The notes under the pieces are model-generated. The model worked only from the letters and a program-made list of their open reading frames with translations, did no database searches and was not told where the DNA came from. From a virus: 64,000 nt of DNA. This document shows positions 1,478-21,372 of this stretch, one piece after another (within the stretch, counting starts at the first letter, position 1; every line of letters starts with the position of its first letter). The DNA is taken from the IMG/VR virus record IMGVR_UViG_3300028571_000013, positions 1 through 64,000 of that record, one strand, 5' to 3'. A program made the translations under genes and the position numbers.

Positions 1478-1499
1478 GTGTTTGTTTTCAATCTCTAAT

Positions 1500-3174: not shown

Positions 3175-3176
3175 GA

Positions 3177-3929: not shown

Positions 3930-3940
3930 TTTCTCACCTA

Positions 3941-3980: not shown

Positions 3981-4007
3981 AATTTAGACCATTTTATAAA
4001 AAATAGA

Positions 4008-4226: not shown

Positions 4227-4329
4227 AATTATTCTCCTTAATTTAAGATCTTTAGAAGAAAACATTTCTTCTATAAGTATATAGAATTCTTTTATTTAAA
4301 AAATTTACAATAAAATGGATAGCTAATGT

Positions 4330-4929: not shown

Positions 4930-5285
4930 TTTTCAAAAGATCCAAGAACAACCAGTTTTTGAGCATTTTCTCTGGTTGTCAAAACAAAAAAACGACCAAT
5001 TGAATCACCATGAGCCGAATGATATTCCGTTCGAAAAATTATTTTATTTTTAATTCTATGCTGTTCTCTGTTGATTAGATTTAATAGTGTGATTTCTAGT
5101 TCGCCTGAATCACATATTGGTATTAGCTCTATGTTATTTTTATCAAGAAAACAAGACCAATTTTGCAAAATTTCACTACTTGTAACTTTTACTGATAAAT
5201 TTGATGAAATTAAATAAGCTTGCTGTATGTATTTTCTTTGCAAAATATCAGATAGGTCACCAATAAGCTTGTCTAAATTGTCCAT
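4926..5285 (-). CDS. Hypothetical protein, 119 aa
   Basis: Not recognised. It is mixed alpha/beta with a helical N-terminus (about 1-30). It begins at the stop codon of the ligase-like gene (ATG overlap), so it is probably translated with it. Confidence 0.65.
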   Translation of the reverse strand: MDNLDKLIGDLSDILQRKYIQQAYLISSNLSVKVTSSEILQNWSCFLDKNNIELIPICDSGELEITLLNLINREQHRIKNKIIFRTEYHSAHGDSIGRFFVLTTRENAQKLVVLGSFEN

Positions 5286-5914: not shown

Positions 5915-5949
5915 ATATTTCTCTTGTTGGTGTTTCCTGCCACCAACAG

Positions 5950-5968
5950 AGCGTACCGGGAGGAAACT
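5950..5968 (-). promoter_or_regulatory. 19-bp repeated motif, copy 2
   Basis: The - strand reads AGTTTCCTCCCGGTACGCT. It lies between the lipoprotein stop and the ligase start. Here the preceding bases (CCGGGAG) pair with CTCCCGG to make a perfect 7-bp hairpin, which other copies lack. Confidence 0.65.
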
Positions 5969-5975
5969 CCCGGCA

Positions 5976-6155
5976 TCAATTTTTTAGTTTTCTACAAATA
6001 CATTTATCGCAACAAGGTTCGCCAGGAATACATCTAAGTCCATCGCATTGATTTTTGCATTCAGGACCGCATTTTTCGTCTCCACATTTACAAGAAACTT
6101 CTTTACATCCAATGCAAAATAATGATAAAAGTAAAATTAAAAAAAATGTTCTCAT
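5976..6155 (-). CDS. Small cysteine-rich lipoprotein, 59 aa
   Basis: Residues 1-16 form a hydrophobic signal segment and FCIGC (13-17) is a plausible lipobox, so Cys17 would be lipidated. The mature part carries ten more Cys residues in pairs (CKC, CC, CIC), as in a disulfide knot or metal-binding peptide. It presumably sits on the periplasmic side of a host membrane, a place where phages put superinfection-exclusion lipoproteins. The role is inferred. Confidence 0.75.
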   Translation of the reverse strand: MRTFFLILLLSLFCIGCKEVSCKCGDEKCGPECKNQCDGLRCIPGEPCCDKCICRKLKN

Positions 6156-6170
6156 GAAATATTTAGTATT

Positions 6171-7382: not shown

Positions 7383-8644
7383 GATATGTCCTCCAGAGGA
7401 TAGTTTGTATATTCTGTTTCGTCATTAGGAACTATTTCTATTTTCTCGAGAATAACCGAAAGCCTTCTAACATCTTTGCTTTCACCAAGATCGATAGGAA
7501 CAAAACAATCCGAACTAATCATCAATACATTTGGATTTTCTATTTCTACAACATTCTTGCCTTCTTGAAATATAGAGAAAATCTCTTTATCGTTTAATAT
7601 TATTTTAAAGCTCTTTAATTGTCTGATCTTTCTCAGATGTAATTTTACCTTTGATATATTATTAAATATAAAACTATTATGATCCGAAAGCCACAATATA
7701 TCGTTTTCAACAGGATATCTGGAGCTGTTAATACATATGGAAGCTGTGTCTTTTATCTTAAAATCTTCTTTTCTTTCAACCAAATATTCTTTTAAATCAT
7801 TTTTCAATTTTTCGTTTGATACTATCTGGTATAAATCGTTTTTTTTCTTAAAATTCTTTTTAAATGTTATTTTGTTGATTATTCCGTATCTTGAATCGTA
7901 TTGTCTGTGTTTTATCATTCCGTGAAACAAATGAGTCAGAACAATATCTTTTAAATATGTTGCAGAACCCAAGCCGCTCTTTTTAATAAAATCAACGCAA
8001 TTATTTATGTAATCCAACGCTTCAGATCTAATGTCTGGGCATATTCTATTAAGAAAATCTAATTTGATAAAATTATCAGAAAAGAAAGGGATGATGTTTA
8101 TGGTATCCCCTCCACCCACAACGCATTTATCGAAAAGTCCACCAGCAGCCGTTAGATAGTCTCTCCTATACGCTACAAGAGCCCCAGGATTGCCAAAATC
8201 CACAACCCTACTCTTTTGCATATACGATACAATACCGGCGTAAAAACTGTCGTAGGAGCCTTCTACGGGCCCAAGATACTTTATTTTATCGTATGGTTGG
8301 ACAAACACATATTCGTTTAATAAATCGCTGGTCTTTTCAACCCAACCAGAATCATTAAAAATAAGATCGCAATCAGAAACTATAATTTTTGTATAGCTTT
8401 CTGGGATTTTTTTAAGTAAAAAATTTATAGCACATTCTTTGTGCCATAAATCATCTTCGCTCAACAACAAAAAATGATTTTTTGTTGGAGTCAATCTTGG
8501 CTGATCATTTTTTGTTATTTCACAAACAAAAAGATGATCTTCCATTCCGTTTGATTTAACGGAATCCAAGAATTTATAGAAATTCTGAGTTCGATTCTCA
8601 GAATTAGTGGGATTATAAAAACAAGTTAATATGCAAACATCCAT
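7379..8644 (-). CDS. GT-A fold glycosyltransferase with C-terminal extension
   Basis: The protein has 421 aa from ATG 8644. An N-terminal strand and helix (MDVCILTCFYNP) are followed by the DxD-type metal motif VSDCDLIF (about 89-96). GALVAYRRDYLTAAGGLFD and GGGDT (about 160-190) resemble the acceptor segment of family 2/7 enzymes. The last ~130 residues form a separate beta-rich domain. No Shine-Dalgarno is visible: the start codon lies inside one arm of a 17-bp perfect inverted repeat (8634-8674), which should hide it in mRNA that begins upstream. Confidence 0.75.
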   Translation of the reverse strand: MDVCILTCFYNPTNSENRTQNFYKFLDSVKSNGMEDHLFVCEITKNDQPRLTPTKNHFLLLSEDDLWHKECAINFLLKKIPESYTKIIVSDCDLIFNDSGWVEKTSDLLNEYVFVQPYDKIKYLGPVEGSYDSFYAGIVSYMQKSRVVDFGNPGALVAYRRDYLTAAGGLFDKCVVGGGDTINIIPFFSDNFIKLDFLNRICPDIRSEALDYINNCVDFIKKSGLGSATYLKDIVLTHLFHGMIKHRQYDSRYGIINKITFKKNFKKKNDLYQIVSNEKLKNDLKEYLVERKEDFKIKDTASICINSSRYPVENDILWLSDHNSFIFNNISKVKLHLRKIRQLKSFKIILNDKEIFSIFQEGKNVVEIENPNVLMISSDCFVPIDLGESKDVRRLSVILEKIEIVPNDETEYTNYPLEDIS

Positions 8645-8674
8645 AGTGTAAATAATATACACTATGGATGTTTG
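8634..8674. repeat. Perfect 17-bp inverted repeat over the glycosyltransferase start
   Basis: The arms are 8634-8650 and 8658-8674 with a 7-base AT loop. The ATG of the glycosyltransferase lies in the 3' arm on the - strand. No T-tract follows in the - direction, so it is not an ordinary terminator for the rIIB-like gene. Confidence 0.9.
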
Positions 8675-8689
8675 TTTTTCAACTGTGAA

Positions 8690-10021
8690 TTATTCCTTAA
8701 AAATCAATCCCTTTTCCATCAAGAGAGAGCAAACTTCTTTTTTCTCGGAAGGTGTTGCAGGACGATTGCCTCTTCCATTAAATTGAACAATGTTCTTGCT
8801 TGAAATTTCAACATTATAAATCATTTCGTTGGTATCTGTGGACATTAGTGCAAAAACAATACATCCTTTTTGAGCAACCTTTTTATCATATCCGGCCTTG
8901 CCAATACAATTTTGCATTAGGTTAGTCCATTCCTTCAAGTCATAGTTTGTCTTGGGGAAAAGGAATCTGAGCTTACCAACCTCAACATCATTGAGTTCCC
9001 AAAATTCTGGGAAATTTTTGTCAATATCAAGGTTGATCTCTGGATCACCGAGCTTTCTATGCTCAGACCTAAGATATTCAAAGATTGTCTGGCAATCGTT
9101 GCTGAATTGAATTCTTTGGATATCCAGATTGATCTTTTCTTTAAGATCAACAAAATAACCACCAATTTCAACAAGATGAACTTGTTCTTTTGCACTTGCC
9201 AAAAGATTTAGTATCTTCTTTTGGCTATAGGTTCCATTTTTCTCAACACTATATTCTTTGAGAAACGTATTGAAATTTCTATAGCTTGAAACGTCACCAT
9301 GAGTAATCTTGAAAAGCTTTTTCTCAAGAACTTCATAAAGATTATCTGGATGAAGAACGTCTTTGAAAGCATCTCCAAAAAGCAGAAAAGTATGATCGAC
9401 GAAATTGATTGCTGGCTTGAACATCTCTTGAATTGCAATCTTTTTCAGCTTTTTGGCGGAAAAGCCAAAAATAGAAGTTAAGATATCGTCAAGATTCTTT
9501 CTCTCGTAAAAGAAATTGCTGTATTCCTCAGGGACCGAAGCGACGTTATAGAAGTTGATGGAACCAACTTCTTGATTCCTTTTATTGAGAATACTCTTGG
9601 TTTGGTCTGCATTACCATTTCTGTAGACCAGATAAAAGCCATCTTCAGTAATAGGATATGCCCCATTCTCAACAAGAGCATTGATCATCTGGCTTGCAGT
9701 TTCATTGTCCACCCTGGTCTTAAGGTTGAACCAAAAATTGAGAAGACTCTTGAATACCCAACTGCTTTCCTTGTATTTCAGAAATTGATTGCCAAGAACG
9801 CTAGGGATTGGCTCTCCCTTGAAACATACCAAGCCATCTTCAACAACAAAACCATCCTTATCAAGATTCTTGGTGGGGTCTACGGCGACCTTTACAGAAT
9901 CAAAATCTTGATTTGAAAGAGCTTGCTTGATTCTGGCGTAACGATAATCATCCTTGCTGATGGTGTGAACTGTGCCATCAAAAGAAAGAACTATCGAGTT
10001 GTTGAGATTATAGTATTTCAT
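8690..10021 (-). CDS. rIIB-like: rIIB-like protein fused to a PcfJ-like C-terminal domain
   Basis: The protein has 443 aa. The start is set at MKYYNLNNS; the longer frame runs through the 19-bp motif. Residues 1-160 resemble the second half of T4 rIIB (FDGTVHTI, VVEDGLVCFKGEPIP, LVENGAYPITEDGFYLVYR). The C-terminus (about 370-440) carries LMQNCIGKAGYDKKV, FALMST and VQFNGRGNRPAT, which resemble PcfJ-family proteins of plasmids and phages. rIIA/rIIB control lysis timing and exclusion of other genetic elements in T4. The rIIA homologue is two small genes upstream. Confidence 0.75.
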   Translation of the reverse strand: MKYYNLNNSIVLSFDGTVHTISKDDYRYARIKQALSNQDFDSVKVAVDPTKNLDKDGFVVEDGLVCFKGEPIPSVLGNQFLKYKESSWVFKSLLNFWFNLKTRVDNETASQMINALVENGAYPITEDGFYLVYRNGNADQTKSILNKRNQEVGSINFYNVASVPEEYSNFFYERKNLDDILTSIFGFSAKKLKKIAIQEMFKPAINFVDHTFLLFGDAFKDVLHPDNLYEVLEKKLFKITHGDVSSYRNFNTFLKEYSVEKNGTYSQKKILNLLASAKEQVHLVEIGGYFVDLKEKINLDIQRIQFSNDCQTIFEYLRSEHRKLGDPEINLDIDKNFPEFWELNDVEVGKLRFLFPKTNYDLKEWTNLMQNCIGKAGYDKKVAQKGCIVFALMSTDTNEMIYNVEISSKNIVQFNGRGNRPATPSEKKEVCSLLMEKGLIFKE

Positions 10022-10059
10022 ATCCACTCGCTTATTGTAGATGATCCGTCTAAGAAGAA

Positions 10060-10078
10060 AGCGTACCAAGAAGAAACT
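10060..10078 (-). promoter_or_regulatory. 19-bp repeated motif, copy 3
   Basis: The - strand reads AGTTTCTTCTTGGTACGCT. It lies about 40 bases before the rIIB-like start and overlaps the stop codon of the preceding gene by two bases. Confidence 0.65.
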
Positions 10079-10361
10079 ACGGGGTTTTGTCGCCCATTAT
10101 AATCTTGATTTTATTGCTGTCTACAATACAAAAATAACTTTGTGTAATCTTGTTTTTATCAAAACCATCTTCTTGAACAACGGTCCAAATGTTTATTCGA
10201 TAACGATTTCCATAAACATTTGTAGCTTTGATCTTGATGCAATTTTTTGGCTTTTCAATTTGCTTTAAAAGCAAATCAATCACATCACTCTCGCTGATTT
10301 TCTTTTCAACGTCGATTGCAACATTCTCAGAGACATTTTTTTCTTTTACCATAGTCTTCAT
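10077..10361 (-). CDS. Small paralogue-family protein (NRYRIN motif)
   Basis: The protein has 94 aa. The segment EKPKNCIKIKATNVYGNRY and the following RINIWT are shared with the gene at 25524-25781 (RPKNLITCRAINLWDNRY, RINVYT), as are the D.G.D..KI and C-terminal I.I stretches. The two are clear paralogues. The fold appears beta-rich, as in small nucleic-acid binding domains. Function is unknown. Confidence 0.75.
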   Translation of the reverse strand: MKTMVKEKNVSENVAIDVEKKISESDVIDLLLKQIEKPKNCIKIKATNVYGNRYRINIWTVVQEDGFDKNKITQSYFCIVDSNKIKIIMGDKTP

Positions 10362-10642
10362 TTTTCTTCCTTTGAGTTGATATAAACAATTAATTCTTTA
10401 AGAAAAACAGCATTTTCACTTTCAGACATACTATGTGGAATTGCGTTTAGTAAAAGATACGTGGATTCTGCGTCTGTTTCAAGCTTATTTATCTCATCAA
10501 TTAAAGAATTTAGCTTCTTCTTTGCTTCGAGATATCTTTTAAACAAACCATCTGTAATCTTTTTTTCGTCATTTTCTTTTAAACGCTCTGCCCATTTACC
10601 GAGAGATCCTCGATAACAAATTTCCCACTTTTTATAGTTCAT
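10358..10642 (-). CDS. Hypothetical coiled-coil protein, 94 aa
   Basis: Not recognised. It is helical with heptad-like Leu spacing at about 37-65. It sits between rIIA-like and rIIB-like genes with 1-4 base overlaps on both sides, so it is translationally coupled to both. Confidence 0.7.
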   Translation of the reverse strand: MNYKKWEICYRGSLGKWAERLKENDEKKITDGLFKRYLEAKKKLNSLIDEINKLETDAESTYLLLNAIPHSMSESENAVFLKELIVYINSKEEK

Positions 10643-12813
10643 TACGATGCCGCCTTGCTATGCTTGGCATTAAGATAAAATACAAACTCATTCAACTCTC
10701 TCTGCTTATCTGAATGATTGCCATAGTATCCACCAACGATATAACTAAGTTGCTTCATTAGAGGATACTTTCGAGTAATCTCCTCTTCAAGCTTTGCAAC
10801 CTTCTTAACATTATCGTTAACTGCTGAGTAATAGGGATACATTGAAAGAATCCTATCGGGAATCGTGGTTGTATTCCTTCTATTATCAGCAGGCGCCTGA
10901 CCCTTGATTCGGAAATATTCTGCAATCTTATCACACTTGATCTTATCAAGAGACTTTCTCAACGGCTCAAAGGTATTGCTTGCCTGCTTGAAAACAAAGT
11001 CTTCAATAATCTTATTATCAATATCAACGTGATCGCTGATGGACTCGGCAACGTCAGAATATTCCATCACATTATCCAGAGTGTTTACAGCATCATAATC
11101 TCGCTTACTGAGCTTAATGATTTTGTAGTTACCATGCTCGATAAGAAACTTGATGTTTTCAATAAAGATGGGATTATCGAAATCATATTCCTCTGAGCCA
11201 GAGAAGGGAACAGAAATATAATTATGAGCACTTGACTCAATCCACTCAAGAGTTACATCTTCCTTGCTATCAGATTCAAGCTTGCCATGCCTATATCCGT
11301 AGCGATGATCAGCCGGCTTAATATACCTAATGCTGACAGTCCCGGACTCTTTCTTGGCTTTATAAGCAGGCTTGTCAAGCTGAATATCAGTGATGTAGAT
11401 AGCCTCAAGATGATCCTTGAGATTATTCTTCTGCTCTTCGGTATAATGATTGATCACATACACATAAGAAAGAATTTCATCATCAGAGAAAAGCTTCTTG
11501 ATCTTTTCCTTGAAAACATATTCAGGAACATGCCTTCCGTTCTTATCTTCATTTACAAGAACAAACTTTACCTTTTCTTCACCAAAGTGAATTTCGGCAT
11601 TTCCAACACGATTTAGAATTCGCCTAGTCTTTTGACGCTTAATATTGTATCGCTCAACAATACATCCGGTAAAGCTAGATGATTCAATCTTACCGTTAGG
11701 AAGAAGCTTATACGAACATCCGTTCTTCTTAAAAGCAACATCCAAAGTCTTAGGAAAATTCCCAAGATTGAATGTAGCCTTAAGCTTAAAGTAGAAGTTG
11801 ATGTAGGATGGAATATCCTTGAAGTCTTTTTCAAACTGATCTTCCACACAAGAATAAAGAGACTTTCTCGCCTCTTCGCAAATCTCATTAACTTTTTGCT
11901 TGCTGCCTTCCTTATCGGAAATGCTTTCCCTAGTGGCAGAAACTTCAAGAACACCATTACCAACTTCAATAAAGCTCATGTGAGCTGCATATGAAGCAGA
12001 CTTAAGCTTTTCAACCTCAGGACATTCCCGAGAAAACTTATTGATGCTGTATGGGATCTTATCAATCAGAACATAAATGTCCTGGTTGTATGAGTCGAAA
12101 AGACGCTTAACAAGATCGTCCTTTTCAAGAAGAAACCAATTATCCTTCTTGTAAAGAATCTTATCACTGCCTGCAAGCCATGATGCAGGAATTTCAATAT
12201 TTGTAATTCCCTTCAACTCAGGCTTAACATCCCAAAAATAAGTGCAACGATAAACAGCAGCCACAAACTGCTCAATATCACACTCTTTAACAGGAACCTG
12301 AATTTCAACGCCATTGGGTTCGGTTGAATCAACCTCACTAATGAGTTCAAGGGTGCCATTGCTATTCTTGCCAGTGTGAGCAATATAAGTTCGGCACTTA
12401 CCCTGGTGATGGCTTACAACAATAAAGCTATCGGTATAAGCCCACGCACTCTTTGCACCGATACCAAACCCACCAGTTTGAACATTGTCCTTACGCTTGG
12501 TGCTGCTTCCGTAAAGAACGAAAACATCCTTAACACGATCCGGAGACAAACCGGTTCCAAAATCTCTGATTTTAAGAACACTATCGAGCTTTGTTGGGAG
12601 AGTAACCCTTAAAGGAGTATTAGCATTACCTGCATCACGATGACTATCTCTGCCGTTACAAAGATATTCCTGAGTCAGAGTTCGAATTGGATTTGAATAA
12701 AGCCTGTTGCGAAGGATATCAATGATGGTGCTAACATCACCGATACCGAATTCGAGGCTATCTGCGTTATTGTTGTTGGTATCAAGAACAGAACCGTTAT
12801 TAGAAATCTTCAT
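10642..12813 (-). CDS. rIIA-like: rIIA-like protein with GHKL ATPase domain
   Basis: The protein has 723 aa, close to T4 rIIA (725). The N-terminus carries all three GHKL ATP-binding boxes: QEYLCNGRDSHRD (48-60), IRDFGTGLSPDRV (82-94) and GGFGIGAKSAW (114-124), plus LYGSSTKR (100-107), all typical of rIIA. The rest is a diverged large domain. With the rIIB-like partner it is expected to form a membrane-associated complex that affects lysis timing and competing prophages (known for T4; inferred here). Confidence 0.9.
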   Translation of the reverse strand: MKISNNGSVLDTNNNNADSLEFGIGDVSTIIDILRNRLYSNPIRTLTQEYLCNGRDSHRDAGNANTPLRVTLPTKLDSVLKIRDFGTGLSPDRVKDVFVLYGSSTKRKDNVQTGGFGIGAKSAWAYTDSFIVVSHHQGKCRTYIAHTGKNSNGTLELISEVDSTEPNGVEIQVPVKECDIEQFVAAVYRCTYFWDVKPELKGITNIEIPASWLAGSDKILYKKDNWFLLEKDDLVKRLFDSYNQDIYVLIDKIPYSINKFSRECPEVEKLKSASYAAHMSFIEVGNGVLEVSATRESISDKEGSKQKVNEICEEARKSLYSCVEDQFEKDFKDIPSYINFYFKLKATFNLGNFPKTLDVAFKKNGCSYKLLPNGKIESSSFTGCIVERYNIKRQKTRRILNRVGNAEIHFGEEKVKFVLVNEDKNGRHVPEYVFKEKIKKLFSDDEILSYVYVINHYTEEQKNNLKDHLEAIYITDIQLDKPAYKAKKESGTVSIRYIKPADHRYGYRHGKLESDSKEDVTLEWIESSAHNYISVPFSGSEEYDFDNPIFIENIKFLIEHGNYKIIKLSKRDYDAVNTLDNVMEYSDVAESISDHVDIDNKIIEDFVFKQASNTFEPLRKSLDKIKCDKIAEYFRIKGQAPADNRRNTTTIPDRILSMYPYYSAVNDNVKKVAKLEEEITRKYPLMKQLSYIVGGYYGNHSDKQRELNEFVFYLNAKHSKAAS

Positions 12814-13855
12814 TAGAAATAACTCCTTCGTTAGTATTAAGAAAATTAATTGCCTGAGTATTATCGCCAGAAATCATATGTTCAAAGAAATCTTCAATAT
12901 CTTTCGGATTCAACAAACTGATCTTCATGAGAAGATCAGGAATTGAAATCTTTCCAACCTCATCCTTATAAACCTTGATAAAAGCCAGAACCTTACGCCA
13001 AATTTCACTTGAGATTTGAATATACCTGGGTTCATCTACACGCTTGTCTGCGAAAGCATATATTGTTTTGAGCTCTTCCTCATCTAAATCCTTCAAACCA
13101 TTAAGATTAATCAGCTCAATAGCACCCTTGACAAGCTCTTGACAAAGAACAACAAACGTTCTAGCTTTTGCCACTACTTTTGGATTATCATTTTCATTCT
13201 CACCATACTCTACTTTTGAACTGCCTTGAACAAGCATATCCAAATTGTCAGAACTTTCAAGCATAGAGGAATAATCAATCTTCCAATATGTGTAAACAGT
13301 TCCAACACTTACCTCATCATAAATCCCAATTATATCTTCTGAAATCTTTTCCAAGTCATTTCTAACAAGGTGGTGCATCGTATAAAAAGCATGGATGCTT
13401 GCACCTTGAGTAATGCAATTCAAAAGAATTCTTTTGTTGATGCTATCTTTCAAAGATTGCGAAAGTGAATCATAATCATAATCTTCTTCTGGGAACGACT
13501 CATCTGTTGAATTAACATCAATGTCTTCTTTATTGAGATGAGCTTCCAAAATATCTTCTGGAATTTCAAAAGCCTCACTCACAGCCTTGATTGCAAGTTC
13601 CTTAAGAACATCCTCATTTCCGCTTTCTTCTTGAAGAGCGGCAATAAACTTGTTTGTCAAAGAATTGAAATCAAAATTGATCCCAAGATTCTTGATTCGA
13701 TCATCAACAAACTCATAGCTCTTCTTGGAAAGATCATCGCCAAAGTAAACAAGATTCCTGTTTTTCTTGAAAACATGAAACTTGCTTTCGTTCTTCTTCA
13801 AATCTTTCCAAAAATTTCTAATCTTTGGATTAACGTGCAAACTATTGCTATACAT
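12800..13855 (-). CDS. Hypothetical acidic protein, 351 aa
   Basis: Not recognised. An acidic patch (DIDVNSTDESFPEEDYDYDS, about 112-131) separates a Lys-rich N-terminus from a helical C-terminal half. It overlaps rIIA by 14 bases and starts at the stop of the proline-rich peptide, so it belongs to the rII operon and may work with it. Confidence 0.75.
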   Translation of the reverse strand: MYSNSLHVNPKIRNFWKDLKKNESKFHVFKKNRNLVYFGDDLSKKSYEFVDDRIKNLGINFDFNSLTNKFIAALQEESGNEDVLKELAIKAVSEAFEIPEDILEAHLNKEDIDVNSTDESFPEEDYDYDSLSQSLKDSINKRILLNCITQGASIHAFYTMHHLVRNDLEKISEDIIGIYDEVSVGTVYTYWKIDYSSMLESSDNLDMLVQGSSKVEYGENENDNPKVVAKARTFVVLCQELVKGAIELINLNGLKDLDEEELKTIYAFADKRVDEPRYIQISSEIWRKVLAFIKVYKDEVGKISIPDLLMKISLLNPKDIEDFFEHMISGDNTQAINFLNTNEGVISNEDF

Positions 13856-13965
13856 CAGTTCTTAGGCTCCGGCATTACCGCTGGGCGGGGTGCCTTAAAG
13901 GGGCTTGTTGGCGTCTGTGGCGTCTTTGCCGGGGTTTTAACCGGCGGCGGGGCGGTTGCTGGCAT
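13855..13965 (-). CDS. Proline-rich micro-protein, 36 aa
   Basis: ATAGGAGATAAG precedes the ATG. The product is 30% proline with repeated Thr-Pro and Ala-Pro steps (PATAPPPVKTPAKTPQTPTS), and its TGA overlaps the next ATG (TGATG). The good ribosome site and tight coupling argue for a real gene. It could be a ligand for SH3-like or chaperone surfaces, or a leader peptide. The local GC content is high compared with neighbours. Confidence 0.65.
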   Translation of the reverse strand: MPATAPPPVKTPAKTPQTPTSPFKAPRPAVMPEPKN

Positions 13966-14002
13966 CTTATCTCCTATTCTCGTTTCTCTCGCACAACCGA
14001 AC

Positions 14003-14021
14003 AGCGTACCACAAAGAAACT
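14003..14021 (-). promoter_or_regulatory. 19-bp repeated motif, copy 4
   Basis: The - strand reads AGTTTCTTTGTGGTACGCT. It lies 38 bases before the proline-rich ORF, the first gene of the rII operon. Confidence 0.65.
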
Positions 14022-14025
14022 TCTA

Positions 14026-14346
14026 TTAGTAATTCTTATATTCAGGAATATCGCCGTTCGATTCTATTTTTTCATTTTCATAAGTGCTAGCAAGTCTTCT
14101 ATACAGTTCTTGATTAATATTCTCAAGAACGCCTGTGACTACCGCAATTTTCTTATAAGACGGCGAGCCAATTAAACCAGCACAAATCCTGCTTATACAA
14201 TAATTCAAATCACCAGATATTTCCAATATTTGTTCTGGCGATAAAGCAGGATTTGTTTCTGTAGAGACCTGCTTCTCAATAGCAGATCTTAAATCTAAGA
14301 TAGCACCATCAAGTTTTTCTCGTCTTTTTTTATCAATATATGGCAT
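14026..14346 (-). CDS. Hypothetical helical protein, 106 aa
   Basis: Not recognised. It is predicted all-helical from its sequence pattern. A Lys/Arg-rich start (YIDKKRREKLDGAI) could bind nucleic acid. Its stop lies five bases before motif copy 4. Confidence 0.65.
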   Translation of the reverse strand: MPYIDKKRREKLDGAILDLRSAIEKQVSTETNPALSPEQILEISGDLNYCISRICAGLIGSPSYKKIAVVTGVLENINQELYRRLASTYENEKIESNGDIPEYKNY

Positions 14347-14398
14347 ATTAGCACTCCTTGCAAAGTATTGTACGTTTTTTCAAAAATTTGTCAAATGT

Positions 14399-14572
14399 TT
14401 ACTTTTTGCTAAACTTTTGAATATATCCTTCTTCATCATTACTGTATTCATCATATAGCACACAAGACTCATGCTCTTCACAAATATGATTTAGATATTC
14501 GATTTCTTCAATTTGAATTTTGGCTTTTTCAATATCTTCTTGTTTTGTATTTGATTCTTTTTCTTTTTTCAT
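14399..14572 (-). CDS. Hypothetical acidic protein, 57 aa
   Basis: The start is set at MKKEKESNTKQ, where GGAGGGGACAC precedes the ATG. The middle is a Glu-rich helix (EDIEKAKIQIEEIEYLNHICEE split over about 13-34). Motif copy 5 lies 20 bases upstream and a terminator insulates it from the HTH gene before it. Confidence 0.6.
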   Translation of the reverse strand: MKKEKESNTKQEDIEKAKIQIEEIEYLNHICEEHESCVLYDEYSNDEEGYIQKFSKK

Positions 14573-14591
14573 GTGTCCCCTCCGATCACCG

Positions 14592-14610
14592 AGCGTACCA
14601 CAAAGAAACA
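14592..14610 (-). promoter_or_regulatory. 19-bp repeated motif, copy 5
   Basis: The - strand reads TGTTTCTTTGTGGTACGCT. It lies directly between a rho-independent terminator and the next gene, the position expected of a promoter. Confidence 0.7.
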
Positions 14611-14616
14611 AAGGCA

Positions 14617-14657
14617 ATAAAAAACCCCTGCTGGACATTTTAGTTCCAGCAGGGGTT
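14617..14657 (-). terminator. Strong rho-independent terminator after the HTH gene
   Basis: On the - strand AACCCCTGCTGGA pairs with TCCAGCAGGGGTT (13 bp) around a short loop and is followed by TTTTTA. It ends the 14682-14942 transcript. Confidence 0.9.
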
Positions 14658-14681
14658 CAAGGACTGATTGTATCAGAAAAA

Positions 14682-14942
14682 TTACCTGCCGCGACGAATT
14701 TGAGCAAGAATTTCCTTGGCTTTTTCAACGACACTTGGACGACCACCACGGGGGAACTTTCTTAGCTCAACACCCTCTTTACGAAGCTTGCTTGCACGAA
14801 GGCTAACTGCTGGTGGTTTAATGCCTAACTTCTCTGCAACTTCTGATATAGACTCATTTCGAGTGTCCTCATATGCCCGAATGAAATCTTCTATCGAAAC
14901 ATATGACCTTTTTTCAGAATCAGCCTTTTTGACGGTTGCCAT
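14682..14942 (-). CDS. Small HTH DNA-binding protein, 86 aa
   Basis: The start is set at MATVKKAD because CTAGGAGAAACCAAG precedes it. The HTH is SISEVAEKLGIKPPAVSLRA (about 31-50), with a basic C-terminal wing (LRKFPRGGRPSVVEKAKEI). The strong terminator behind it suggests independent expression. It is probably a transcriptional regulator of the phage programme. Confidence 0.8.
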   Translation of the reverse strand: MATVKKADSEKRSYVSIEDFIRAYEDTRNESISEVAEKLGIKPPAVSLRASKLRKEGVELRKFPRGGRPSVVEKAKEILAQIRRGR

Positions 14943-15091
14943 CTTGGTTTCTCCTAGTTGGCGGTTTCTTTTCCGCAAGAACAACATTGATCTTGCTTCT
15001 GTTTCAAACATATACGATGAAAAACAAAAGGCAAGAGACTGGTGCACAATATTTTTGCAACATAGAATAATTTTATGTTTCTAAGATAAAT

Positions 15092-15370
15092 CTAGAGTTC
15101 CATAGGTTCTGCGTCATCTATTTCTATTTTGCCAAAATAATCTTCAGAGCGATTTTGAATTAAGCCCTCTTTGATTAGCAGGGACTTAACAAAATCAATT
15201 CTGCAACAAATTTCTTCAAAGGATTTTTTATCGCTACAGTTTTTAATAAACTTGAAATGATTTTCATATTTATTTGTTCTAAAAACTAGCTCTACAACCT
15301 CCATAGCCTCATTTTTTATATTATCTTTGAACACATTTTCAATAATGTGGTTCATTTCTTCTTTCAACAT
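15092..15370 (-). CDS. Hypothetical protein, 92 aa
   Basis: Not recognised. It is a helical protein with three cysteines (NCSD, ICCR). No recognisable motif is seen. About 150 bases without a gene lie between it and the HTH gene that follows it. Confidence 0.6.
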   Translation of the reverse strand: MLKEEMNHIIENVFKDNIKNEAMEVVELVFRTNKYENHFKFIKNCSDKKSFEEICCRIDFVKSLLIKEGLIQNRSEDYFGKIEIDDAEPMEL

Positions 15371-15394
15371 TTTTAATCTATCTTATTTTCTATA

Positions 15395-15964
15395 TCATCC
15401 TTTCAAAACAAGAGGAATGAGCTTTAACTTCAAATCACTTTCCAGATTGGAATCAATTATACACCTAACAAGATCCTGCATCTTATGAGTTGACTTTGTT
15501 TCAACAACTTTGACCGGCTTGACAGTAGAATTGATCTTGGTTGAAGTAGTCTTAACTGTGCTTCTTTCATTGTAGTGATGGTAAAAATCAACCAAGGTTT
15601 TTACCTTCCACTTGAAACCATTTGAATCCCTATATCCCTGCTTGTTGATATAAGAAGCTGCTTCCTTATACCCAGTTTTAAATCCTGGCTTCAACGGATT
15701 ATCTCTAATCATAGATTCAACCAGATTGTAAACTTCTTTTCTATTCTGAGCACCAGTAATTCCTCGTTTGCAAATCTTCAAAGCATTCATATTATCCTCG
15801 TTTGGGGTTTCTTTAATATCTTTGGCTCCTTTTTGGAGCAGATATTGTTTTACAAAAATCAAATCATTTTCGGAAAGCAAATCATTTAAATCTTGTTCGC
15901 TTTCCAAAACAACATCACTACAATCTACGGATAAGGATTTACCCAGTTCCGATAAAGTATTCAC
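15395..15964 (-). CDS. Hypothetical protein sharing a C-terminal domain with its neighbour
   Basis: The protein has 189 aa. Its end (LVRCIIDSNLESDLKLKLIP) resembles the end of the adjacent HTH protein (LVSAIIKCDMDANSKLELLK), which suggests a shared oligomerisation helix pair. The centre (LKPGFKTGYKEAASYINKQG, DSNGFKWKVKTLVDFYHHY) looks like a DNA-binding recombinase-type N-domain. A regulatory role is inferred. Confidence 0.6.
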   Translation of the reverse strand: MNTLSELGKSLSVDCSDVVLESEQDLNDLLSENDLIFVKQYLLQKGAKDIKETPNEDNMNALKICKRGITGAQNRKEVYNLVESMIRDNPLKPGFKTGYKEAASYINKQGYRDSNGFKWKVKTLVDFYHHYNERSTVKTTSTKINSTVKPVKVVETKSTHKMQDLVRCIIDSNLESDLKLKLIPLVLKG

Positions 15965-15984
15965 AGGAAATCCTTTCCTAAAAT

Positions 15985-16326
15985 TTAGAAGAAATTCTTC
16001 AAAAGTTCCAGCTTAGAATTAGCATCCATATCGCACTTAATAATAGCAGAAACAAGATGGTTCACACTGATTGGTCTAGCTTCGCCATTCTTAGCCATTT
16101 GCATTAAAGTCTGCTTATTCTTAAACGCAACCTCATCAATAACAGACAAAGCCTTTTTCTTCATGCTTTTGTAAGGCTTTTTATAATCAGAAAGTATTTG
16201 CCCGATTCTTGGGGCTGATACTCCGAACTTTTCTGCTATCTCATTTTGAGTAGCGCCATTCTTACGCATCTCAAAAATCTGCTTGTTTCGGGCTGTCATA
16301 TCGTTTTTGGAAAGCTTAGTCTTCAC
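15985..16326 (-). CDS. HTH protein with MAKNGEARP motif
   Basis: The protein has 113 aa. The HTH is ATQNEIAEKFGVSAPRIGQI (about 25-44), of the sigma-70 region 4/resolvase type. LMQMAKNGEARP (about 74-85) recurs in the repeat protein at 20600-21136 as LIRMANNGEAKP, so this is a genome-wide module. The C-terminus matches the neighbouring gene. It is probably a transcription factor. Confidence 0.75.
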   Translation of the reverse strand: MKTKLSKNDMTARNKQIFEMRKNGATQNEIAEKFGVSAPRIGQILSDYKKPYKSMKKKALSVIDEVAFKNKQTLMQMAKNGEARPISVNHLVSAIIKCDMDANSKLELLKNFF

Positions 16327-16397
16327 AATCGTCTCCTCGGGTTAGAACAAAACAAAAGAACACAAACGCACATACTAAGGTAGTAGGCAAGTAGTTG

Positions 16398-16604
16398 TCA
16401 AGCAAGTTTCTGGAACTTTTCTTGGTAGTCTTTCCACTTGCCTTGTGTTAGGTGGTTGAAAATATCTTTGGCTAAAGAGTCCACATCTTCTGAACGTGAA
16501 TATTCTTCGTCACCAATATATTTCCAGCTATATCCGCCTTCTTTGGAATTTTTGACATCATATTTCAAAGATTTAGCCCACTTTTTGATTTCGCCAATCA
16601 TCAT
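16398..16604 (-). CDS. Hypothetical protein, 68 aa
   Basis: Not recognised. It has a Trp/Lys-rich short alpha/beta sequence (IKKWAKSLKYDV, WKYIGDEEYSR). It looks like a small nucleic-acid or nucleotide binding fold but no signature is present. Confidence 0.6.
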   Translation of the reverse strand: MMIGEIKKWAKSLKYDVKNSKEGGYSWKYIGDEEYSRSEDVDSLAKDIFNHLTQGKWKDYQEKFQKLA

Positions 16605-16633
16605 GATAATATATTCTCGAAGATATATTTTTG

Positions 16634-17566
16634 CTATTTTACTGGGTAGAGAATGTAATTTGGAGAAAAATCTTTTAAGCCGTCTGAAGAGTAATTTTTA
16701 ACCGGTATTTGTTGCACAGCCAGCGGACCAAACAAAAACTCACTCAGCATAGATCTATTTGGTAAAACTTTATAATATGGTTGTTGTCCGCTATTGCCAT
16801 GACTATCTGCGAACTTCTTCAAAAATTGAGCTAGCGTTATTTCTTTGTTTTCTTTTACTGCATTGAATGTTGAAGATAGCCTTGAAGCAAAAACTCCTCT
16901 TGTCGAAAGATCTTCAACGCTTGAAGAACTGATGATAAGAATTTCTTCATAAGCACCACTATCTTCACAAAAATCTATCTCATCATTCTTTAAGCTAAAT
17001 ATCCCAGCAAATGGTTTGATTTTAAAAGAAAATCTATTGGGCATTTCTGGTAGATAATCTGTGGGTATGGCTATTTGAATTTCTCTCAATAGCTGTCCGT
17101 CTTCTTTTAAGCTTTCTTGAATACTTCCTGCAGCATGACAAGTATCAACTAAAAACACTAATCTTCTAACAGTTTTAACTTTAGCTATTGCCGCAATTGC
17201 TTTACTAAATCTAAAGTTTCCATCAGAAGAAGACATTATAAATCTATTTCCGCTTCCTCCTCCATGACTATTCAAATAAAGAAGAAGTGTTCCATTGTCA
17301 TCAAGCTTTGAAGCCATATCAGCCATTTTTGAATATATAAAATTGGATGGAACGTTGTGATATCTCTCGGCTTTAAATCCAAGAGAACGATCTTTGAAAA
17401 CGCCTTCCATCAAATCTAAATTTCTTAGTCTGCCATTTTCATCTGTCATTGTAAACAGACCGGCTATATTGTTTGCATTAACATCTATAGCAAAACCTGT
17501 TTTATCTTGTGCGAAAATAGGACTTGAAAAAATCAAGACAACAAAAATAATTAAAAACTTAAGCAT
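16634..17566 (-). CDS. Secreted caspase-like (clan CD, C14) cysteine peptidase
   Basis: The protein has 310 aa. A signal peptide is clear at 1-20 (hydrophobic core, cleavage near FAQ-D). The caspase-hemoglobinase fold is indicated by LLLYLNSHGGGSG with His101 and VFLVDTCHAAGS with Cys143: the His-Gly and Asp-x-Cys dyad spaced as in bacterial metacaspase-like enzymes. A beta strand with ILIISSSSVEDLS and a downstream GVFASRLS segment also fit. Bacterial homologues cleave after basic or acidic residues; the specificity here is unknown. Export to the periplasm is inferred. It is an unusual cargo for a phage. Confidence 0.85.
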   Translation of the reverse strand: MLKFLIIFVVLIFSSPIFAQDKTGFAIDVNANNIAGLFTMTDENGRLRNLDLMEGVFKDRSLGFKAERYHNVPSNFIYSKMADMASKLDDNGTLLLYLNSHGGGSGNRFIMSSSDGNFRFSKAIAAIAKVKTVRRLVFLVDTCHAAGSIQESLKEDGQLLREIQIAIPTDYLPEMPNRFSFKIKPFAGIFSLKNDEIDFCEDSGAYEEILIISSSSVEDLSTRGVFASRLSSTFNAVKENKEITLAQFLKKFADSHGNSGQQPYYKVLPNRSMLSEFLFGPLAVQQIPVKNYSSDGLKDFSPNYILYPVK

Positions 17567-17588
17567 GTCTTTATTTAGTAAATAAATA

Positions 17589-18134
17589 TCAATATTTCAA
17601 GACAGCAAAGGATTCCCAAGATTCCTGCTTATTATTAAACGTTTTTAGTAAACTCCACTTTTCTTTGTTTTTAGCTAATTTGGGGAAATCTTCTAGAAAA
17701 AAATAAAAGCCAATTTTTACTGGGTATTCATTGATTCTACCTGGGCATCCACCACCTGTGTGAAAACCTCTAAATCCATATCCATATAAATATGAACTGA
17801 ATAGCATATTTGATGCACAGTCTACATGTATATTCTTGTTGTTTTGTGCAAAAAAAGAAATTTGACCTTGCCAGCCGGGATAATTTCTTGGGGCGCCTTC
17901 TATTCTACCACCCCAATTAGTCACACCATTTATAGGGCATCCATGACTGTTTGAAACATGGTCATAATATTTAACATCTACTTCAAGGTTTGAAATATCT
18001 GTGTCGTAAAATTCTTTTGATTTCTCGATAAACATTTGTGGAAAATCACAAACACTCGACAAATTAAGACGAATATAATCAGAATTAAATTCTTTTGACA
18101 AGTTTACATGCCGATTGCTTTGGCATAACTCCAA
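17589..18134 (-). CDS. Hypothetical protein, up to 181 aa
   Basis: Not recognised. It is rich in Gly, Trp, Asn and aromatic residues in the centre (GCPINGVTNWGGRIEG, GWQGQISFF, FHTGGGCPG), like a compact beta-rich or secreted-type fold, but no signal peptide is seen. The start overlaps the NTase gene by 31 bases, so the true start could be a later TTG near 18099. Confidence 0.55.
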   Translation of the reverse strand: MELCQSNRHVNLSKEFNSDYIRLNLSSVCDFPQMFIEKSKEFYDTDISNLEVDVKYYDHVSNSHGCPINGVTNWGGRIEGAPRNYPGWQGQISFFAQNNKNIHVDCASNMLFSSYLYGYGFRGFHTGGGCPGRINEYPVKIGFYFFLEDFPKLAKNKEKWSLLKTFNNKQESWESFAVLKY

Positions 18135-18742
18135 ATAGTTTTTGCATCCATATCTTCGGGCAAATAGTCTTTTAGATTTTTGAGATGTGTTTTAAGTTCT
18201 TCTTTTGGAACTGTTTTCAGTAATTTAAAGGCATCACTCGTGTCTTTATCACGACCGATAACGAATTTCATTATAGTTAATACGGCGTTATTGATGATTG
18301 GAAATGTGACTCCACCGATTTGTGTGGAAACCGCCGTTTTCAAGATATAATGATTAAGAGGTGCATTACCCTCATCTGCATCAAGGAAATCAGCGTCTAA
18401 CTGTGGAACATAAATTCCACCAAATTCTCCATTAGAAGCAAGTGGTTGAAAAGCTATTCCCTTTTTTTGAAGAACTAACTTTATACTACTTATTTCTGAA
18501 GTCAAAAAATCAACGTCGGGCGTTAAAGCTCGATTATCGGAATAGTGACTCACAGCAATTCCACCGATGATAACACCGCTAATATTGTTGTCGTGGATGA
18601 ATTGCATTGCGCTTTGGGTTTTGTTAATCGCATTAGGGGTTAATACCGCCATTTCATTGAATAGCGAAGAAGAATCAAATGAGGAATGATCCCTCAGATT
18701 AACGATTGTTTTAGACACAAAGAATTCCTTGAATGTTTCCAT
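18104..18742 (-). CDS. Nucleotidyltransferase-fold protein (AbiEii/MNT-like)
   Basis: The protein has 212 aa. The pol-beta NTase signature is VIIGGIAVSHYSDNRALTPDVDFLTS (begins about residue 57), with GG and the D-x-D pair. A third acidic strand is QLDADFLDADEG. This layout is seen in AbiEii-type toxins, in MNT antitoxins and in many uncharacterised transferases. It could modify host tRNA or protein, or counter a host defence. Activity cannot be told from sequence. Confidence 0.7.
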   Translation of the reverse strand: METFKEFFVSKTIVNLRDHSSFDSSSLFNEMAVLTPNAINKTQSAMQFIHDNNISGVIIGGIAVSHYSDNRALTPDVDFLTSEISSIKLVLQKKGIAFQPLASNGEFGGIYVPQLDADFLDADEGNAPLNHYILKTAVSTQIGGVTFPIINNAVLTIMKFVIGRDKDTSDAFKLLKTVPKEELKTHLKNLKDYLPEDMDAKTIWSYAKAIGM

Positions 18743-18793
18743 GGATATATGTATGAATAAGATTCAGAATTTCTGACTTAGATATCACAGAGA

Positions 18794-19879
18794 TCATTCT
18801 TCTTCTGCTTTAAACTTAAGTTGAGTTTGCTGACATTCTTCTGAATTTATGTCTGTTCTTTTTCCAAGGTAGATAGGCTGATACAAAGCACCAGACTGCT
18901 TCCTTGCATAAAGATACTTTACCTCAACTACATCTCCAACTTCTGGAATATCAAAGTTTACAGAAATAGTGACGTTACCAGCCTTTACAAGCTTCTTGCC
19001 CTTATAAAGACCTAACGCAGCACTACGCTTTTTGTTAATGGCTGTTACAACGCAGCTACATGTGCTGTAGAATTTATGCTTGAGATACTTGCCACCACTT
19101 GCAGGGCGACCAACATAATAATGTGCATCAATATGCTTGAATACAACACCCTCTTGATTGCCTGCCAATAGATTTTCGTAGATTTTACGCTTTTCCTTTT
19201 TATCAGTATAAAAAGGAGTGAATACAATATGTTCAGAAGAGATATGCTTGAACAAAGCATTGAGATGCTTCATTCTTTCAATAAAGCTCTTTTTACGCAG
19301 ACACTCTCCTTGATGTTCAAGAATATCAAATACGTGAAAAGTTTCTCCAATCAATTCCCCATCAATAAAAAAGCTGTGCTGCAGACTGTTTATGGAGTTC
19401 CAAATAACAGTGGGAATATTGGTTCTCTTACCCTTGCGATTAAACGCATTGAGAGATTCTTTTTCTTTTTTACCAAGCATAAACCTAACTCCATCAAGCT
19501 TATGCTGCAAAGCCCAATCATCATTATCAATAAGCTGCTCTGCTTCATCCTGTTCAATGGGATTGAGCAACACACATTGAATTTCTGTGGGAGTATCGGG
19601 CAAATCATCACTCACAACATTGATTGCTTCGTTAGAAGCCTTGTCAATATATTGGTAGCCCTTTCCCGTCTTTTCCTTAATAAGACTGGTGAAAATAGAT
19701 TTTGCTTCATTTAGTGAAGTGGGCGAATTTGTCTTACTTCCGGTCTTTAAAGCACTTCCCCTTCGACCATAAGCAAAATTAACAACATAGTTACCACCAA
19801 TATCTTCAATGGTGGCATGATAAACTTTATCACTGGCGCCTTCTTTGTAATAAAGATTAGCAGATTCAATTACAGACAT
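18794..19879 (-). CDS. WGR-domain ATP-dependent DNA ligase
   Basis: The protein has 361 aa. An N-terminal WGR domain (1-75; NFAYGRRGSALKTG) is followed by the ligase core: motif I HKLDGVRF (126-133, Lys127 the adenylated residue), motif III FIDGELIGETFHVFDIL (171-187), motif IV EGVVFKH (243-249) and motif V YLKHKFY (265-271). An OB fold follows (VVEVKYLYARKQSG). WGR domains bind nicked or broken ends, so this is probably a repair or replication ligase. A core-only ligase is encoded at 5285-5914. Confidence 0.9.
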   Translation of the reverse strand: MSVIESANLYYKEGASDKVYHATIEDIGGNYVVNFAYGRRGSALKTGSKTNSPTSLNEAKSIFTSLIKEKTGKGYQYIDKASNEAINVVSDDLPDTPTEIQCVLLNPIEQDEAEQLIDNDDWALQHKLDGVRFMLGKKEKESLNAFNRKGKRTNIPTVIWNSINSLQHSFFIDGELIGETFHVFDILEHQGECLRKKSFIERMKHLNALFKHISSEHIVFTPFYTDKKEKRKIYENLLAGNQEGVVFKHIDAHYYVGRPASGGKYLKHKFYSTCSCVVTAINKKRSAALGLYKGKKLVKAGNVTISVNFDIPEVGDVVEVKYLYARKQSGALYQPIYLGKRTDINSEECQQTQLKFKAEEE

Positions 19880-19894
19880 TATATTATTCCTTTA

Positions 19895-20128
19895 TTATCG
19901 TTGAATACGTTGGTTCAAAACTTGATTAAGCATATATTGGCTTTCAACTTTTTTCAAGTCAGTTAGAAATTGTGGATCTGTATTAGGAGGACAATCAAGA
20001 TAAACACGCAACGCTGTCATTCGTGCAACGAGATTTTTAATCCAATCTCTTTCTTTAGAATAATCCCTTGGATCTTGCAAGTATTCTTCTATATCAGAAA
20101 TAGCCTCGGAAAGAACATCAGAAATCAT
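19895..20128 (-). CDS. Hypothetical helical protein, 77 aa
   Basis: Not recognised. It is all-helical (SEAISDIEEYLQDP, WIKNLVARMTALRVYL). It lies 15 bases before the WGR ligase gene and probably shares its mRNA, which would start near motif copy 6. Confidence 0.65.
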   Translation of the reverse strand: MISDVLSEAISDIEEYLQDPRDYSKERDWIKNLVARMTALRVYLDCPPNTDPQFLTDLKKVESQYMLNQVLNQRIQR

Positions 20129-20173
20129 CGTAAAACCTCAAGAGCCTTGTTACTGCTGCCTGCACAAGGAGAG

Positions 20174-20192
20174 AGCGTACCGGGAGGAAACT
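20174..20192 (-). promoter_or_regulatory. 19-bp repeated motif, copy 6
   Basis: The - strand reads AGTTTCCTCCCGGTACGCT, identical to copy 2. It lies between the ferredoxin stop and the start of the 77-aa gene, 45 bases before that ATG. Confidence 0.65.
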
Positions 20193-20201
20193 ACTTGCTT
20201 T

Positions 20202-20561
20202 CTATGCAATTCCCACAAGATTGTCCCAATTCTTTTCGATGTAATCAGGATGTCCGCCAATTTTAGCTACTACGTTGGCGGCTTCTTCCGTTGGAACCAT
20301 TTCAATTGCATCCCAAGGACAAACCTTTAATTCATAGGGATTAGTTTTTTTGCCAGGAATATGAACGCAAACTTCACATCCAACACATCTGTCTAAATCA
20401 ATCTGGCACCAGCTTTGTAGATTATGAAACTTGTCATGTTGTTGAATTTTGATAATGCAGTCAACAGGACAAACTTCCAAACAAGCCTCGCATCCGGTGC
20501 AATTATCTGCATTAATAATTGCAAGCTCTTTTGGAAGTTTTTTTCTGGGAAGTTGTTTCAT
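20202..20561 (-). CDS. 2[4Fe-4S] dicluster ferredoxin
   Basis: The protein has 119 aa. Cluster ligands are C21-x2-C24-x2-C27-x3-CP (CTGCEACLEVCPVDCI) and C59-x2-C62-x2-C65-x15-CP (CVGCEVC...VCPWDAI). The second motif has a long insert between the third and fourth Cys. Ferredoxins of this kind carry electrons to oxidoreductases. No partner enzyme is in the window, so it probably feeds a host enzyme or a phage enzyme encoded elsewhere. It is close to bacterial sequences and looks host-derived. Confidence 0.9.
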   Translation of the reverse strand: MKQLPRKKLPKELAIINADNCTGCEACLEVCPVDCIIKIQQHDKFHNLQSWCQIDLDRCVGCEVCVHIPGKKTNPYELKVCPWDAIEMVPTEEAANVVAKIGGHPDYIEKNWDNLVGIA

Positions 20562-20599
20562 ATAATTATTTATATCGGTTTAGTCTAAAAATTAAACAG

Positions 20600-21136
20600 C
20601 TATTTTACAAGAGTCCGCTTTTTTCTGAACCAGTCTGGTCTTAATTTACGGATAGTTTTGTTAAAATTTGGGCAGTAAGATGATCTAAGTTTATTTGTAT
20701 ATCTAGATAAAGTTATTCCTTCTTTTGTTTTCTGGCTCGGTTTAGCTTCGTCGTTTCTGGCAATTTGAATCAATTTTTGTTTTTTTTGATTAATCGCCTT
20801 TTTTTGAGATAAAAACCAATCAGGTCTAAGATCTCTGATTAATTTACTAAAAACTGGATCGTGTATCTGTGAAGATTTTTTTGTATAACTTACGAGTGAT
20901 TGTCCAATTTTTGTTTTCTGACTTGGCTTAGCCTCTCCATTATTTGCCATTCGGATTAATTCTTGTTTCTTTTGATTAGCAATTTGTGTTTGAGATAAAA
21001 ACCAATCAGGTCTAAGATCTCTGATTAATTTACTAAAAACTGGATCGTGTATCTGTGAAGATTTACTTATATAAGTACTAAGAGCCTGATATTCTTTTGT
21101 TTTATAATGTGGTTTATTTGCTCCGCTTTTCGCCAT
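20600..21136 (-). CDS. Three-repeat protein (RPDWF repeats), probable DNA binding
   Basis: The protein has 178 aa made of three units of about 58 residues, each with a basic segment, GEAKPSQKTK, a Y-T/S-K helix and FSKLIRDLRPDWF (third copy: FNKTIRKLRPDWF). Units 1 and 2 share long identical stretches, also at DNA level (20818-20881 and 20998-21061). The spacing resembles helicase-associated or homing-endonuclease DNA-recognition repeats. No catalytic motif is present. Confidence 0.7.
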   Translation of the reverse strand: MAKSGANKPHYKTKEYQALSTYISKSSQIHDPVFSKLIRDLRPDWFLSQTQIANQKKQELIRMANNGEAKPSQKTKIGQSLVSYTKKSSQIHDPVFSKLIRDLRPDWFLSQKKAINQKKQKLIQIARNDEAKPSQKTKEGITLSRYTNKLRSSYCPNFNKTIRKLRPDWFRKKRTLVK

Positions 21137-21141
21137 CTCTA

Positions 21142-21372
21142 TTAATTTCTGCTTTTTATAAGCAACAGAAGATCACTTAGTTTTTGTAATGCTTCTAATC
21201 TTTTTTCTCTGAGAGTATATCCTTGATTCAATCCTGCCACAAATCCACACTCAAAATAATAATAATCGTTTTTGTTACCCTCGTTATCCATACTTATCCA
21301 AAGCTCTTTGGCTAAATGTCGGGCTTCGCTATAGTGTTGTCTCATCTTTTCTAAGAGTTCTTCACTAGGCAT
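21142..21372 (-). CDS. Hypothetical protein, 76 aa
   Basis: Not recognised. It is helical with a short aromatic centre (NDYYYFECGFVAGLNQGY). It overlaps the next gene by eight bases, as part of a chain of small coupled genes. Confidence 0.6.
   Translation of the reverse strand: MPSEELLEKMRQHYSEARHLAKELWISMDNEGNKNDYYYFECGFVAGLNQGYTLREKRLEALQKLSDLLLLIKSRN

What the first reader, a model, noticed from the sequence alone, without database searches (positions are those of the whole stretch)
16634..17566. Phage-encoded secreted caspase-like peptidase
A clear signal peptide precedes a caspase-type His101/Cys143 dyad. Caspase-like enzymes in bacteria act in defence-related cell death (for example CHAT/caspase effectors); a phage exporting one is unusual. 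It might cut envelope proteins for lysis or exclusion, or inactivate a host system.
Basis: partly seen in the sequence, partly recalled or inferred. Interest (0 to 1): 0.78.

Follow-up and report, generated by a model that had tools for sequence, protein, structure and literature searches.

The report
Exported caspase-like protease of huge phages
A gene carried by very large viruses of bacteria encodes a protein-cutting enzyme of the caspase kind with a tag for export from the cell; at least 24 such viral sequences share it under strong selection and it was not found in bacterial genomes, so these viruses probably use it to cut proteins in the host's cell envelope.

Summary
The ORF at 16634-17566 (-) encodes a 310-aa protein with an N-terminal export signal and a His101/Cys143 dyad. 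Both residues are invariant in all 17 aligned relatives, spaced 42-43 residues apart. An AlphaFold2 model (pLDDT 77) matches caspases and MALT1 best. The window protein itself scores below Pfam cut-offs; members L024 and L026 pass the caspase domain PF00656.

The gene is one of a family found in 24 IMG/VR virus contigs up to 459 kb, under strong purifying selection (dN/dS about 0.035). It was not found in 84,980 prokaryote genomes, 50,697 phage records or PHROGs, within the limits of those searches.

The window is a chimera. Bases 1 to about 21.2 kb, including this gene, match huge phages (187 and 323 kb). The rest matches a different phage at 99-100%. The gene's own phage is therefore not the one whose capsid genes lie in this window.

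Best explanation: a Sec-exported cysteine peptidase, probably preferring basic P1 residues, that cuts host envelope proteins during infection. Fold, dyad, export signal and selection are well supported; activity, substrate, timing and benefit are inferred. No link to defence-related cell death was found.

The parts
16634..17566 (-). CDS of the exported caspase-like peptidase (310 aa)
   Evidence: 24 homologous records each with one copy; dN/dS 0.035 against L001
17510..17566 (-). predicted export signal, residues 1-19 (MLKFLIIFVVLIFSSPIFA|Q)
   Evidence: rule-based: K3, hydrophobic core, small residue at the predicted cleavage site; hydrophobic N-terminus kept in 17/17 members; SignalP not available
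17117..17494 (-). p20-like catalytic core, residues 25-150 (about)
   Evidence: AF2 order strand-helix-strand-helix-strand-His-helix-strand-Cys; Foldseek to caspases/MALT1
17264..17266 (-). catalytic His101 (NSHGGG)
   Evidence: invariant 17/17; aligns with His164 of the GPI transamidase chain 7w72_K
17138..17140 (-). catalytic Cys143 (DTCHAAG)
   Evidence: invariant 17/17; aligns with Cys206 of 7w72_K; the only cysteine conserved in the family
17144..17146 (-). Asp141, Cys minus 2, probable S1-pocket acid
   Evidence: invariant 17/17; corresponds to TbMC2 Asp211 by motif (PMC6426788)
16727..16957 (-). p10-like half, residues 204-280 (about)
   Evidence: AF2 strand 206-213, helices 225-237 and 245-254, strand 264-268; conserved EILIISSSSVEDLSxRG and QQPxxK
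17589..18134 (-). upstream neighbour of unknown function, 22 bp away, kept next to the gene in L001 but not elsewhere
   Evidence: no Pfam or PHROG hit
1..21215 (.). segment of the contig derived from a huge phage of the G001/G007 lineage, which holds the gene
   Evidence: matches G001 at about 71-93% nucleotide identity and 77-98% amino-acid identity for most shared genes

Best explanation
The gene encodes a Sec-exported cysteine endopeptidase of the caspase fold (clan CD, nearest to Peptidase C14). It is made by huge phages and sent into the host envelope, where its His101/Cys143 dyad cuts one or more host envelope or surface proteins during infection. This most likely helps release of progeny or blocks receptors against re-infection. 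Shown or strongly supported: the reading frame, family, fold, invariant dyad, N-terminal export signal and purifying selection. Inferred: proteolytic activity, preference for basic residues before the cut, location after export, target and benefit.
For: Fold: the AF2 model from a 17-member alignment has pLDDT 77 and pTM 0.77; the best PDB matches are MALT1, caspase-1, CED-3 and caspase-4/11 (E about 1e-5); in BFVD, giant-virus caspases. Sequence: PF00656 matches 14 of 17 members, best 3.9e-12; L026 scores 41.4 bits and L024 26.5, against a cut-off of 21.4. Dyad: invariant at near-constant spacing and aligned to the catalytic His/Cys of GPI transamidase. Export: hydrophobic N-terminus in 17/17 and no second segment of that strength; L021 and possibly L026 look like lipoproteins. 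The catalytic Cys is the only cysteine conserved in the family, and in 5 members the only cysteine in the chain, which suits an oxidising compartment; L011 has a secreted thioredoxin gene just upstream. Selection: dN/dS 0.024-0.043 in four close pairs. S1 pocket: Asp141 is invariant, and an invariant Glu43 lies where caspases have the P1-Asp-binding Arg (alignment; inferred).
Against: No activity data. The signal peptide is judged by rule, not by SignalP. TM-scores are moderate (about 0.4-0.6). Hosts are unknown, so the compartment after export (periplasm, outer surface, medium) is not known. No lysis gene is consistently beside it. The gene lies in different genome places in different phages, so context does not name the target.
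Confidence: 0.55

Rival explanations
1. Counter-defence: the exported peptidase inactivates a membrane or envelope-located host defence or stress sensor rather than helping lysis or exclusion.
For: In seven loci the gene lies in an accessory region with an ArdC-like anti-restriction protein (domain tested in L017; cluster C3), and in ten it is next to a conserved protein with an HExxH motif.
Against: ArdC acts in the cytoplasm (established knowledge); no defence-related partner is conserved across the whole family; most known defences are cytoplasmic.
Confidence: 0.2
2. It matures a phage-encoded exported or virion protein (processing protease) instead of attacking the host.
For: In G003 it lies between terminase and portal genes; in L013 it is about 2.4 kb from a virion structural protein gene, with the same layout in L014.
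Against: Phage prohead proteases are cytoplasmic; an export signal argues against capsid processing; in the window and G001 it sits between DNA ligase and rIIA genes.
Confidence: 0.12
3. It is a ligase/transpeptidase like GPI transamidase or legumain, joining proteins at the surface.
For: The best PDB sequence match of the single window protein is GPI-anchor transamidase (E 0.002); Peptidase C13 hits 15 of 17 members at E<=0.1.
Against: All C13 scores seen are below the Pfam cut-off; C14 scores are far better in the family; the fold search favours caspases.
Confidence: 0.06
4. It is a host gene recently picked up or assembled in by mistake, with no phage function.
For: The contig is chimeric.
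Against: The gene is on 23 other virus contigs, some with terminase, portal or rIIA genes, was not found in 84,980 prokaryote genomes, and is under strong purifying selection between phages.
Confidence: 0.03

Closest known systems
Peptidase C14 / orthocaspases and metacaspases (C14B)
   Same: Caspase fold, HG and DxC dyad, Asp two before Cys; family members pass PF00656
   Different: HGGG motif; a distinct family with an export signal, carried by phages; window protein below the Pfam cut-off; specificity untested
Animal caspases (C14A) and MALT1
   Same: Best structural matches
   Different: Caspases have QAC and an S1 Arg; here DTC and a Glu at the aligned place, so cleavage after Asp is not expected. 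MALT1 is multidomain and cytoplasmic
GPI transamidase / legumain (Peptidase C13)
   Same: Dyad residues and spacing align
   Different: Below the Pfam cut-off; no sign of transamidation
Caspase-like proteins of giant eukaryotic viruses (Yasminevirus, cedratvirus, pithovirus)
   Same: Structural match in BFVD
   Different: About 11% identity; viruses of eukaryotes; no shared ancestry shown
Caspase-like proteases of bacterial gasdermin and CRISPR (Craspase) defence
   Same: Caspase-like peptidases in phage-bacterium conflict (PMC9612521)
   Different: Those are host-encoded defence enzymes; this one is phage-encoded and exported

Membership tests
Peptidase_C14 (PF00656, caspase domain) | score over the Pfam cut-off (21.4 bits) | tested here: inconclusive
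   window protein: no hit; relatives L026 41.4 and L024 26.5 bits pass; 14 of 17 members match at E<=0.1
Peptidase_C14 (PF00656, caspase domain) | His/Cys dyad after strands 3 and 4 of a caspase fold | tested here: met
Animal caspases (C14A) | QACxG motif and S1 Arg for cleavage after Asp | tested here: not met
   DTCHA invariant; Glu43 at the aligned Arg position
Metacaspases/orthocaspases (C14B) | acidic S1 pocket with Asp at Cys-2 and a second Asp (TbMC2 Asp95, Asp211) | tested here: inconclusive
   Asp141 invariant; the second acid is not clearly the same residue, possibly Glu43
Metacaspases/orthocaspases (C14B) | cleavage after Arg/Lys | not testable with these tools
   needs an enzyme assay
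Peptidase C13 | score over the Pfam cut-off (22.8 bits) | tested here: not met
   17.1 bits in the window protein, 18.9 and 20.3 in L024 and L026
CHAT effectors | match to a CHAT family | tested here: not met
   no CHAT match in Pfam for any of 17 members
EACC1-associated caspases (NF047832) | NCBIfam cut-off 140 bits | tested here: not met
   12.1 bits in the window protein; best member E 9.4e-6
Known phage protein families (PHROGs) | match to any PHROG | tested here: not met

The most novel reading that the evidence does not exclude
Huge phages carry a dedicated exported caspase-type effector, evolved within phages, that cuts a specific host envelope protein to block rival phages or a surface-located defence: a phage counterpart, acting outside the cytoplasm, of the caspase-like enzymes that bacteria use against phages.
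Probability: 0.2. Interest if true: 0.82.

Novelty: new variant of a known kind. Interest (0 to 1): 0.55.

Why it matters
Caspase-like enzymes are known in bacteria mainly as candidates in cell death and phage defence. A phage-borne, exported family with an invariant dyad, strong selection and no close cellular relative found would put this enzyme class on the attacking side and outside the cytoplasm. It is a single-gene, easily assayed handle on how huge phages, whose biology is mostly unknown, act on the host envelope. The family is absent from PHROGs and the window member falls below Pfam cut-offs, so automatic annotation misses it.

Tried and rejected
Chance pattern: rejected. CHAT or PADLOC defence effector: no support. 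Relatives in named phages: none with the window protein at E<=0.01, and with L024 only spurious hits at E 0.3-0.7. Relatives in prokaryote genomes: none by two pattern-based scans, which would miss distant homologues. A first structure model from three sequences was poor (pLDDT 55) and was replaced. I first read the gene as shared between phages with unrelated terminases; this was withdrawn when the contig proved chimeric. A search for the closest bacterial caspases in a phylum could not be run. Host inference from ribosome-binding sites was uninformative. The upstream neighbour 17589-18134 as an obligate partner: rejected, since three of its homologues have no peptidase within 6 kb and most peptidase loci lack it. 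Literature searches for a phage-encoded caspase or metacaspase found no described case of this family; subscription papers and preprints are largely not held.

Full report
WHAT IS THERE. The minus-strand ORF 16634-17566 starts at an ATG and encodes 310 aa. It begins MLKFLIIFVVLIFSSPIFAQDKTG: a short basic start, a hydrophobic core and a small residue before a plausible cut site. His101 lies in LNSHGGGSG and Cys143 in FLVDTCHAAGS. Pfam sees only Peptidase C13, below its cut-off (17.1 against 22.8 bits). PHROGs and PADLOC see nothing. The best solved-structure match by sequence is GPI-anchor transamidase (E 0.002), with H101 and C143 aligned to its His164 and Cys206.

THE FAMILY. A motif scan and profile-guided scans of IMG/VR gave 23 further contigs. 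All 24 records, this one included, have one copy. Identity to the window protein runs from 96 to about 41%. In the 17-member alignment A3, H101, C143, D141, E43, R46, E174, R223 and the QxP of the C-terminal half are invariant. His-Cys spacing is 42 or 43 throughout, and the catalytic Cys is the only conserved cysteine. Four close pairs give dN/dS 0.024-0.043, two of them with near-saturated dS. No relative was found in 84,980 prokaryote genomes or in 50,697 phage records; these searches reach close to moderate relatives only.

FOLD. With A3 the AlphaFold2 model has mean pLDDT 77 and pTM 0.77. Its 50 best PDB matches are all caspases or the paracaspase MALT1. Viral matches are led by caspase proteins of giant viruses of eukaryotes and include one unnamed protein of a myovirus, ctWaE18. 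PF00656 matches 14 of 17 members, best E 3.9e-12, and the two members scanned singly pass its cut-off. The case for a C14-type caspase fold therefore rests on family, model and motifs together, not on the window sequence alone.

EXPORT. All 17 members keep a hydrophobic N-terminus, and none has another segment of that strength. L021 has a lipobox-like LILGC. In L011 a secreted thioredoxin-like gene lies just upstream, which could keep the catalytic Cys reduced after export; this is a suggestion only.

SPECIFICITY (inferred). Caspases recognise Asp at P1 through an Arg after strand 1 and have QAC at the active site (established knowledge). Here the profile alignment to an ancestral caspase puts invariant Glu43 at that Arg, and DTC replaces QAC. 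Metacaspases use Asp95 and Asp211 for basic P1 residues (PMC6426788). Asp141 fits Asp211 by motif; the second acid is not clearly the same. Cleavage after Arg or Lys is the prediction.

THE WINDOW IS A CHIMERA. Genes from 1 to 20.6 kb have homologues in G001 (187 kb), mostly in the same order, and 14 have homologues in G007 (323 kb); almost nothing beyond that point does. From 21,548 on, the contig is 99-100% identical to another contig, G024 (105,876 bp), which does not continue into the left block. Tetranucleotide signatures change at the same place. Relatives of the right-hand phage carry a different rIIA and lack the 351-aa rIIA neighbour found in the left block and in the huge phages. None of 19 such relatives has the peptidase. 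Misassembly is most likely; real recombination is not excluded. The terminase, capsid and tail genes identified in this record should therefore not be used to classify this gene's phage.

WHICH PHAGES. Six family contigs have terminases at least 48% identical to each other, and the nearest named-collection record of two of them is a 595-kb uncultured phage. Five contigs exceed 200 kb: 204, 226, 251, 323 and 459 kb. So the peptidase belongs to a huge-phage group. Hosts are unknown. The rIIA family occurs in 7 of 23 records searched.

CONTEXT. Neighbours vary: between DNA ligase and rIIA-linked genes in G000 and G001, but over 130 kb from that block in G007; between terminase and portal in G003; alone between opposite-strand genes in L013, L014, L016 and L023. 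Ten loci have an HExxH protein next to it, seven an ArdC-like protein, nine a patatin-like phospholipase within 7 kb, and four an MscL channel gene within 2 kb. The gene itself, not an operon, is what selection keeps.

MECHANISM. The simplest reading is an exported cysteine endopeptidase that cuts host envelope proteins during infection, for lysis or against re-infection. Counter-defence in the envelope is the main rival, then processing of a phage protein. None has been tested.

LITERATURE. Searches of open papers found prokaryotic metacaspases, some with probable signal peptides and some in phage-related operons of Clostridium botulinum (PMC3501461), but no phage family of this kind. The huge-phage paper does not mention caspases or proteases in its main text (PMC7162821).

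VERDICT. A real, conserved, exported caspase-like peptidase family of huge phages; a new variant of a known kind; function open.

Noticed in passing
window 21136-21548: Junction of two different phages in one contig; the right part is 99-100% identical to IMGVR_UViG_3300028569_000016, the left part is of another, huge-phage lineage. Any other finding in this window should be read with this in mind.
   Followed up: yes
L013:7427-7897, L014:7427-7897, L016:7417-7923, L023:10631-11089: Phage-encoded MscL mechanosensitive channel gene (PF01741, E 3.8e-18 in L013) beside or near the peptidase; could act in lysis or osmotic control.
   Followed up: partly
L012, L013-L019, L029, L030, next to the peptidase: Conserved 209-239 aa protein with HEL[AC]H and DE[IV]QAYM motifs and no meaningful Pfam or PHROG match; a possible new metallopeptidase.
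   Followed up: partly
L009, L011, L015, L017-L019, L023, L029, L030: Patatin-like phospholipase genes (PF01734) within 7 kb of the peptidase.
   Followed up: partly
L012, L015, L017-L019, L029, L030: Proteins with an ArdC N-terminal domain (tested in L017) and an HE[VL]AH motif. A short FxxWLxxE-type N-terminus recurs in many proteins of these phages (for example in L009, L011, L012, L013), perhaps a capsid-targeting tag.
   Followed up: no
window 20202-20561: Ferredoxin-like 4Fe-4S protein gene, absent from the matching place in L001.
   Followed up: no
window 18104-18742: Nucleotidyltransferase (DUF2204) gene present here but absent between ligase and the next gene in L001.
   Followed up: no
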